Of a stretch of 64,000 bases of DNA, positions 34,581 through 53,592 are shown one piece after another. The notes beneath the pieces are model-generated. The model did not search any database. It had not been told where the DNA came from and worked only from the letters and a program-made list of their open reading frames with translations. This DNA comes from Cylindrospermum sp. NIES-4074 (lineage in GTDB: Bacteria; Cyanobacteriota; Cyanobacteriia; Cyanobacteriales; Nostocaceae), in the NCBI GenBank assembly GCA_003994795.1, contig AP018269.1:682001-746000 (forward strand). Direction: 5' to 3'. Both the position numbers and the translations under genes were made by a program. Numbering within the stretch: the first letter of the stretch is position 1; each line of letters begins with the position of its first letter.

Positions 34581-34922
34581 CTAAGCACTAGCAAATTCAG
34601 TATATTTCCTCTCTTCAGGAGGGTGAAACGCTAAAACAATATCAAGATTAGAAATACCTAACTTCATTAACTCATTAGCTATTCCTTCCTCTGTCCAATC
34701 TTCTTCTATCTAAATTTTATTATTCTTAATTCTGATATTAACTTGGATATTATTTGTTCTTTTTTTACCATCCCAACCCAAAAAGCACCAAATATAATGA
34801 TGATTTTTATCATCAAAAACTAGACAACTTTCATCATTTAAATTTGTCGCGCCAGAAACCCAATTATGATATTCTGTGAGAACTTGTTTGATAGCTATTT
34901 GATATTGTTCTAGTTTATCCAT
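34581..34922 (-). pseudogene. xisI: xisI-type gene with in-frame TAG
   Basis: XisI family (first named as a factor controlling excision of the fdxN element in Anabaena). MDKLEQYQIAIKQVLTEYHN starts the family, and VFDDKNHHYIWCFLGWDGKK and NNIQVNIRIKNNKI are conserved. A TAG follows at 34710-34712 (codon 71) where the family has Trp (KIW). The same frame then continues [31 protein letters not shown] to a TAG at 34581, giving the normal length of 113 residues. One base change (TGG to TAG) therefore cuts it in half. Its start overlaps the reconstructed xisH stop by 13 bases. Confidence 0.88.
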
Positions 34923-35530
34923 TGTAATATCTCCTCTTTTTGTATATTAACTACAATCATCAAGATTTGATTTAATTGGACAATCTCTGTAATTGAATCT
35001 CTTATAAAAAAGGGCTCTTCATTACTTGTTATGCTAAATACGTCCATTAATCAGACTGAAACCCTTGCCGGATAAGAACAACAGTTGTTATTATTAAGTG
35101 TTTTGGACTTGGTTATAAAATTTAGTCTACAAAAACCTGTAAGCCTTGATTTTAAAGGCAAGTTCTAGATTTTCATTAAAAATTCAGCATAACACCTACT
35201 GAAGAGCCTAAAAAAGTTTTCGTATGTACTTTCTTTAATAGCTAAATAAATTGTATATTCTGGCTCTGTGAGGTTAATTAAATTACGATATAAAATATAT
35301 TGCCCTAAAGCTAGTTCAAAATCTCTCATGGGAGAAGGACTAAGAAAACTTTTGATTTCAACAACTATTTTTCGTCCGTTTTGTTCTGCTGCGATAGGTT
35401 TTTCTGCTGATAAATCAGCAAATAATTCAGCATCCTTGTACTTAATTTTATAAGGATCAGCAGTAATAGTCTAACCATCTTTAATTAAAGCGTTCTTAAC
35501 AGCATCATGGTAAATATCTTTTGCTGGCAT
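34910..35530 (-). pseudogene. xisH: xisH gene disrupted by a 196-bp element and an in-frame TAG
   Basis: XisH family (PD-(D/E)XK-like fold; partner of XisI). It begins MPAKDIYHDAVKNALIKDG at 35530. A TAG at 35471-35473 (codon 20) sits where the family has Trp, and the frame continues TITADPYKIKYKDAELFADL SAEKPIAAEQNGRKIVVEIK SFLSPSP... to YENFF. There a foreign 196-bp element (35013-35208) with an 8-bp target duplication interrupts the gene. Removing the element and one duplication joins YENFF to IRDSITEIVQLNQ... EEILQWIN and a TAG, 138 residues as expected. The gene is dead or, at best, reduced by two lesions. Confidence 0.9.
35013..35208 (-). mobile_element. Small non-autonomous element (MITE), copy 1
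   Basis: 196 bases with inverted ends: the minus-strand start GGCTCTTCAGTAGGTGTTAT and the plus-strand start GGCTCTTCATTACTTGTTAT. It is flanked by the perfect 8-base duplication TAAAAAAG (35005-35012 and 35209-35216). A full-length relative in the other orientation lies at 53312-53506. No coding capacity. GG-start ends and 8-bp duplications fit mobilisation by an ISL3-type transposase (inference). Confidence 0.93.
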
Positions 35531-53299: not shown

Positions 53300-53311
53300 T
53301 ATAATAATTTT

Positions 53312-53506
53312 GGCTCTTCAGTACCTGTTATGCTGAACTTTTAATTAAAGTCCAGAACTGGGCTTTAAAATCAAGGCTTACAGGCATTTGTAGCCTAAAT
53401 TTCAGAACCAAGCCTAAAACGTTAAGAATAACGACTGTTAATATTGTCCAGTAAGGGTTTTAGCCTTATTTGCAGACGTATTTAGCATAACAAGTAATGA
53501 AGAGCC
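53312..53506 (+). mobile_element. Small non-autonomous element (MITE), copy 2
   Basis: 195 bases, starting GGCTCTTCAGTACCTGTTAT and ending with the inverse of GGCTCTTCATTACTTGTTAT. It is flanked by the perfect 8-base duplication ATAATTTT (53304-53311 and 53507-53514). It is a full-length relative of copy 1 at 35013-35208, read in the opposite direction, with many scattered differences inside. It lies just upstream of higB and likely interrupts its promoter. Confidence 0.93.
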
Positions 53507-53592
53507 ATAATTTTTCTTGCTTTTTATTGACTGAATGATTTTCAATGGACATACATACTAACTAGGCTTTGATACTTTTGAAATATAAACGC

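What the first reader, a model, noticed from the sequence alone, without database searches (positions are those of the whole stretch)
35005..35216. A 196-bp MITE inserted in xisH with a perfect 8-bp target duplication
Seen directly: TAAAAAAG at 35005-35012 and 35209-35216 flank a 196-bp block with inverted ends (GGCTCTTCA...). Deleting the block plus one duplication joins the xisH frame exactly and gives 139 codons with a stop that overlaps xisI. The donor and acceptor states can be reconstructed by eye, which is rare. The GGCTCTTC ends and 8-bp duplication suggest an ISL3-type transposase in trans; that is inference from ISL3 norms.
Basis: partly seen in the sequence, partly recalled or inferred. 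Interest (0 to 1): 0.78.

Follow-up and report, generated by a model that had tools for sequence, protein, structure and literature searches.

The report
Jumping-DNA insert in cyanobacterial xisH
A 196-base non-coding jumping element has landed inside a cyanobacterial gene that is also damaged elsewhere and copied eight bases of its target; this is an ordinary kind of event, but a sister branch of the same element family appears to replace stretches of target DNA instead of duplicating eight bases.

Summary
Confirmed. The 196-bp block has inverted ends and a perfect 8-bp duplication. It is one of 7 full-length copies in this genome; 6 of 7 keep perfect duplications. Two related genomes have the empty site, one TAAAAAAG, and open xisH. 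It is a MITE. The partner is inferred: ISL3 elements with the same ends and 8-bp duplications occur in relatives; this genome shows only partial ISL3 genes.

Correction: xisH also has an in-frame TAG at codon 20 and xisI at codon 71.

Beyond the window, the MITE middle occurs in 69 of 145 family genomes, own included, with two kinds of ends. Window-type copies have perfect 8-bp duplications in 44 of 61, CGTGC-type copies in 1 of 28; CGTGC-type ISL3 elements in 0 of 16. At 6 of 6 CGTGC-type sites with both flanks recovered in a relative or paralog, 0.5-1.9 kb of target is replaced. Each end still adjoins a target-like 8-mer. That ISL3 branch deserves follow-up; the window copy is ordinary.

The parts
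35013..35208 (+). 196-bp MITE (ends of type T, ..GTTATGC..)
35005..35012 (+). 8-bp target duplication TAAAAAAG, left copy
35209..35216 (+). 8-bp target duplication TAAAAAAG, right copy
35013..35039 (+). left terminal inverted repeat (27 nt, 85% complementary to the right one)
35182..35208 (-). right terminal inverted repeat
34910..35530 (-). xisH, split by the MITE within codons 105-108 (the same-genus ortholog matches Pfam XisH, PF08814)
35471..35473 (-). in-frame TAG at codon 20 of xisH, separate from the insertion; the copies in G001 and G050 are open here
34581..34922 (-). xisI (Pfam PF08869), with an in-frame TAG at codon 71
34710..34712 (-). in-frame TAG at codon 71 of xisI
53312..53506 (-). 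second MITE of the same family in the window (195 bp, 84% identical)
53304..53311 (+). 8-bp target duplication ATAATTTT of the second MITE, left copy
53507..53514 (+). 8-bp target duplication ATAATTTT of the second MITE, right copy

Best explanation
The block is a MITE: a short element with no transposase of its own. Shown: it inserted at one TAAAAAAG inside xisH, duplicated those 8 bp, and is one of a set of related copies in this genome, four of them nearly identical. Inferred: an ISL3-family transposase acting in trans recognised the about 27-bp ends, moved the element and joined it to cuts staggered by 8 bp. Autonomous ISL3 elements with the same ends and 8-bp duplications exist in related genomes; in this genome only partial ISL3 genes were found, so the partner was probably lost or lies outside the assembly. 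xisH and xisI also carry in-frame TAG codons, so the locus looks like a pseudogene pair; the order of the lesions is unknown.
For: Seven full-length copies in the genome at 84-100% identity, four at 98-100%; 6 of these 7 with a perfect 8-bp duplication. A degenerate pattern of the end matches 34 times in this genome, at up to 2 mismatches, against 1 for the reversed control. Empty site with one TAAAAAAG in G001 (same genus, 93% identity over 849 bp) and G050 (same order), both with open xisH and xisI. Of 12 further copies of this genome tried, three sites are contiguous across the joined flanks in G001 or G002, that is, clean insertions. ISL3 elements with the same ends: G008, 1437 bp, duplication TAAATTAT; G020, six identical 1896-bp copies, five with 8/8 and one with a 7-bp duplication. 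The G021 element's transposase matches Pfam DDE_Tnp_ISL3.
Against: No intact transposase with matching ends was found here: the best hit is 47% identical, truncated, and closest to an element with other ends; the others are partial, one 64% identical with stops inside. The similarity to ISL3 elements covers only the ends (27-48 bp); the origin of the middle is unknown. One autonomous element with matching ends (L044) shows no duplication. Transposition itself was not observed.
Confidence: 0.96

Rival explanations
1. The block is the collapsed remnant of one ISL3 insertion sequence whose middle was deleted at this very site.
For: The ends are ISL3-like.
Against: Seven full-length copies of nearly one length (195-196 bp) at seven places, six with their own perfect duplications, mean that the short form itself moves.
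Confidence: 0.03
2. The block is a conserved structured RNA or regulatory element kept at this place for a function.
For: Length (194-196 bp in 51 of 61 type T copies) and parts of the middle are conserved across genera; one strand, folded as DNA, folds better than shuffles (z -3.6).
Against: In 29 aligned copies only the terminal repeats form a consensus structure, 16 pairs. No Rfam match up to E 1 in the five loci searched. The site is empty in two related genomes.
Confidence: 0.04
3. The block is a programmed excision element, removed to restore xisH as the fdxN element is removed in heterocysts (recalled, from no call).
For: xisH and xisI are named from control of fdxN excision (recalled); precise loss of the block plus one duplication would rejoin the frame at this point.
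Against: The block holds no ORF of 60 aa or more, so no recombinase; xisH and xisI each carry another in-frame stop; the same element lies at seven places of this genome.
Confidence: 0.01

Closest known systems
187-bp MITE of Microcystis aeruginosa PCC 7806 (PMC11448079; passages, and section 21, read)
   Same: 9-nt ends matching GGCTCTTCG ends of ISL3 elements, 8-bp direct repeats, no transposase, attributed there to ISL3; found in genes and intergenic DNA.
   Different: Other genus; homology of its middle with this family was not tested. There the matching ISL3 genes are in the same genome.
ISL3-family insertion sequences (Pfam PF01610)
   Same: Ends and 8-bp duplication match those of type T ISL3 elements in G008 and G020.
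   Different: The MITE has no transposase gene, and its middle matched no ISL3 interior held here.
Nezha MITE of cyanobacteria (Zhou 2008) and the MITEs of Anabaena PCC 7120 (Wolk 2010)
   Same: MITEs of cyanobacteria, the second of a Nostocales strain.
   Different: Neither paper is held; only mentions and reference-list entries in PMC10969869 and PMC3733652 were seen. That one of them belongs to this family is not excluded.
MITEs of Anabaena sp. 90 (PMC3542288; passages)
   Same: 147 complete or partial MITEs of 77-541 bp, 15 of them in disrupted ORFs.
   Different: Described there as having no evident similarity to IS ends of that genome; sequences were not compared here.
IS copies without target duplication at deletions (Ngan 2024, PMC11708052; abstract, and discussion, read)
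   Same: For the CGTGC-type sister branch only: no duplication, and a deletion at the element.
   Different: Reported there as particular IS5, IS481 and IS150 events, the IS150 ones explained as adjacent deletions; here it marks nearly all copies of one ISL3 branch and its MITEs.

Membership tests
MITE | short, without a transposase gene, with terminal inverted repeats | tested here: met
   196 bp; 27-nt repeats at 85%; no ORF of 60 aa or more within it
MITE | several dispersed copies | tested here: met
   7 full-length copies; matches in 23 of 60 genomes searched, its own included
MITE | target-site duplication, with an empty site in relatives | tested here: met
MITE | ends match an autonomous element of the same genome (usual, not required) | tested here: not met
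   only partial ISL3 genes found in this genome; matching ends found in relatives. This lowers the claim about the partner, not the class
mobilised by ISL3 | same ends as ISL3 elements | tested here: met
   L044, L064, L043, L062
mobilised by ISL3 | 8-bp duplication | tested here: met
   44 of 61 type T MITEs perfect, 50 of 61 at least 7/8; 5 of 6 identical G020 elements perfect
mobilised by ISL3 | transposition by the transposase in trans | not testable with these tools
   needs an assay
structured RNA | consensus pairs outside the ends | tested here: not met
   (29 copies); no Rfam match in five loci

The most novel reading that the evidence does not exclude
The MITE body of the window is shared by two ISL3 transposase branches with different outcomes. 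The window's branch (ends ..GTTATGC..) makes clean insertions with 8-bp duplications. The other (ends ..CGTGC.., transposase 46% identical) makes insertions without duplication in which the two ends are joined to two separate target-like sites 0.5-1.9 kb apart and the DNA between is lost: a transposase branch whose usual product is a replacement, either in one step or as an insertion almost always followed by an adjacent deletion.
Probability: 0.45. Interest if true: 0.7.

Novelty: new member of a known kind. Interest (0 to 1): 0.42.

Why it matters
For the window: a well documented MITE insertion (copies, duplication, empty site) that marks xisHI here as a pseudogene pair. Beyond it: two sets of ends on one MITE body give a natural comparison of two ISL3 branches, and the CGTGC branch, if its usual product is a replacement, would be a steady source of gene deletions in these cyanobacteria and would make the question of how a DDE transposase picks two target sites directly testable.

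Tried and rejected
Rejected: chance (copies and empty sites); xisH naturally containing the block (G001 and G050 lack it); RNA structure of the middle (pairs only the ends; no Rfam match in five loci); origin of the middle from an ISL3 interior held here. XisH and XisI match no PADLOC family. For the CGTGC branch: exchange of flanks between present copies was tested on the eight identical copies of Calothrix PCC 7716, and no 8-mers matching at 7 or more of 8 were found. Insertion into random breaks fits poorly, because each end adjoins an 8-mer close to the type T target consensus (means 6.4 of 8 against 4.9 in nearby background); that consensus was chosen after seeing the flank counts. One step against two steps is not settled.

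Limits. The match tables were cut by the tool, so further matches exist that I did not see. In one search, 14 loci were prepared (3861 nt) but 3597 nt were pasted, so the last locus (L202) was lost almost whole and 13 were searched. In one search, 11 of 12 prepared loci were meant; 3125 nt were pasted, with the end of L264's right flank cut and about 45 nt of L265's flank left in. In one search, 12 further copies of this genome were put in (the two adjacent ones with one flank cut to 17 nt); the places C3:83094 and C4:176956 were not. In one search, 5 of the 25 loci were not put in, 2 gave no pair of ends, and one (L278) had no believable right end. In one search, 3 of 18 transposases were dropped as shorter than 251 residues. 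The counts 44/61 and 1/28 and their Fisher test treat copies as independent, though copies in one genome are related. This genome was not searched for MITEs with CGTGC ends. That G138 is Calothrix NIES-4105 and G150 Calothrix PCC 7103 is inferred from equal contig lengths.

Full report
Observation. The block 35013-35208 is 196 bp, begins GGCTCTTCA, ends TGAAGAGCC, and is flanked by TAAAAAAG at 35005-35012 and 35209-35216. The terminal repeats extend to 27 nt at 85% complementarity. With the flanks joined in a script, xisH reads 138 codons and a closing stop that overlaps the start of xisI, as stated. The orthologs in G001 and G050 are open at both places. The locus is therefore damaged three times, and the order cannot be told. 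Two other places of this genome match the xisH part at 76-79%.

Copies in this genome. A search with the 196 bp finds 7 full-length copies at 84-100% identity, one of them also in the window (53312-53506), and three partial matches. Six of the seven have a perfect 8-bp duplication; the seventh (L005) has 3 of 8. Four copies are 98-100% identical, so movement was probably recent. A degenerate pattern of the end, with up to 2 mismatches, matches 34 times in the genome against 1 for the reversed control; paired ends show a second subfamily of 184-189 bp, which the family profile aligns over its whole length.

Empty sites. G001 (same genus) matches the left flank through TAAAAAAG and the right flank from TAAAAAAG, overlapping by exactly those 8 bases; G050 (same order) does the same. 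Aligned against the joined flanks, both run through with one TAAAAAAG. Their xisH and xisI genes are open, and Pfam names the G001 pair XisH and XisI. Of 12 further copies of this genome put in as joined flanks, three sites (L002, L008, L074) are contiguous across the junction in G001 or G002; for the other nine neither genome showed both sides. With the window site, 4 of 4 sites that could be compared are clean insertions.

Partner. ISL3 elements with the same ends occur in related genomes: G021 (1437 bp, open frame of 425 aa, no duplication seen), G008 (1437 bp, duplication TAAATTAT, one stop in the gene), G020 (1896 bp, with a passenger gene of the 23S rRNA-intervening-sequence protein family). 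The six identical G020 copies have 8/8 duplications in five cases and a 7-bp one in the sixth. In this genome PF01610 finds three places, and the G021 protein finds four. The best is C-terminally truncated, 47% identical to the G021 protein and 87% identical over 356 residues to an element with other ends. A 64% identical fragment carries stops; the others are partial. No intact matching transposase was found.

Family. Matches to the MITE were found in 23 of 60 genomes searched, its own included, and in 7 plasmid records of Aulosira, Tolypothrix, Calothrix and Nostoc at 69-76% identity. A sequence-only model of 72 positions of the middle finds matches in 69 of 145 genomes of the family, its own included. 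The profile of the MITE shares only the ends with the ISL3 elements held (27-48 bp). It also matches its own reverse complement over the full length, which suggests descent from an inverted duplication (my inference). In 29 aligned copies only the terminal repeats form a consensus structure; 5 of its 16 pairs change on both sides, partly because some copies have other ends.

Two kinds of ends. Most copies have ends with ..TTATGC.. (type T). Others, in G014, G020, G024, G033, G074, G121 and the six genomes of genus g30, have ..CGTGC.. (type C) around a homologous middle. An ISL3 element with type C ends is present in G008 (L046); its transposase is 46% identical to the type T one. In a tree of 15 of 18 transposases the seven type C rows form one group (100/100) and the three type T rows another (100/99).

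Different outcome. Over the unique-flank copies held, type T MITEs have a perfect 8-bp duplication in 44 of 61 and at least 7 of 8 in 50 of 61; type C MITEs in 1 of 28, namely L215 (the same place as L183). Fisher p is 3e-10 if copies are taken as independent. Autonomous type C elements with both ends found have no 8-bp duplication in 16 of 16 (15, L046); two older copies in Calothrix PCC 7716, read by eye, have none either. Eight of the 16 are 100% identical copies in PCC 7716; that genome search found eight at full length and 100%, and two more at full length and 80-85%. Two elements of other end types in the list do have one: L275 8 of 8, L279 7 of 8 counted by eye.

Replacement of target. 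Where both type C flanks were recovered elsewhere they are not adjacent. For MITEs the relatives hold 845-848 bp (in a repeat-protein gene), 483 bp (in a phosphotransferase-like gene), 1532 bp, and 1751-1762 bp (in a large GTPase-like gene) between the two flanks (the gene labels are my reading of the translations). For the autonomous element, L264 lacks 782 bp against two relatives, and L263 lacks 1948 bp against three paralogous repeats in its own genome that are identical over 700 bp on the left and 98.8-100% identical over 238-254 bp on the right. That is 6 of 6 sites with both flanks recovered. The other loci put in (13 MITE loci and 11 autonomous, so 18 of 24) had no genome with both flanks close together in the rows shown, and those tables were cut. 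I saw no clean type C empty site in the rows shown.

Each type C MITE end nevertheless adjoins an 8-mer like the type T target (RNAWWTNY; means 6.4 of 8 against 4.9 in nearby background, p 3e-14), although the two 8-mers of one element differ. This points to two transposase-made joins rather than capture at random breaks; the consensus was chosen after the flank counts were seen. No 8-mer is shared, at 7 or more of 8, between ends of the eight identical copies, which speaks against exchange between present copies. [quoted passage not shown] it would have to have hit nearly every copy, including identical, hence probably young, ones. I leave one step and two steps open.

Print. Searches on MITEs, ISL3 and cyanobacteria led to one close report, the 187-bp Microcystis MITE (PMC11448079). 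Searches on ISL3 with missing duplications or deletions, and on Calothrix insertion sequences, listed 8, 2 and 0 papers; from those listings I recognised none on an ISL3 branch that replaces target DNA, and I read only PMC11708052 among them. The library is open-access only.

Verdict. The window copy is a new member of a known kind. The sister branch is the part worth following.

Noticed in passing
window 53304-53514: A second MITE of the family, in inverse orientation, with duplication ATAATTTT; no ORF of 60 aa or more overlaps it.
   Followed up: yes
window 34581-35530: Both xisH and xisI carry an in-frame TAG besides the MITE insertion; whether such TAG codons are frequent elsewhere in the genome was not checked.
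   Followed up: partly
L249, L250, L251, L252, L263, L264: Type C (CGTGC-ended) MITEs and ISL3 elements sit in place of 0.5-1.9 kb of target DNA and lack duplications.
   Followed up: partly
L043, L062, L320-L324 (G020): An ISL3 element carrying a passenger gene of the 23S rRNA-intervening-sequence protein family (PF05635).
   Followed up: no
L005, L010 and L099 (G000:C1:1616768-1617214): Two MITEs of the two subfamilies lie 17 bp apart, one with 7 of 8 and one with 3 of 8 matching flank bases, next to a further lone end at 1617193-1617214.
   Followed up: no
left flank of L181 (G150): A sequence of about 73 bp recurs in 31 listed places of this genome (probably Calothrix PCC 7103) at 96-100% identity; not identified.
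   Followed up: no
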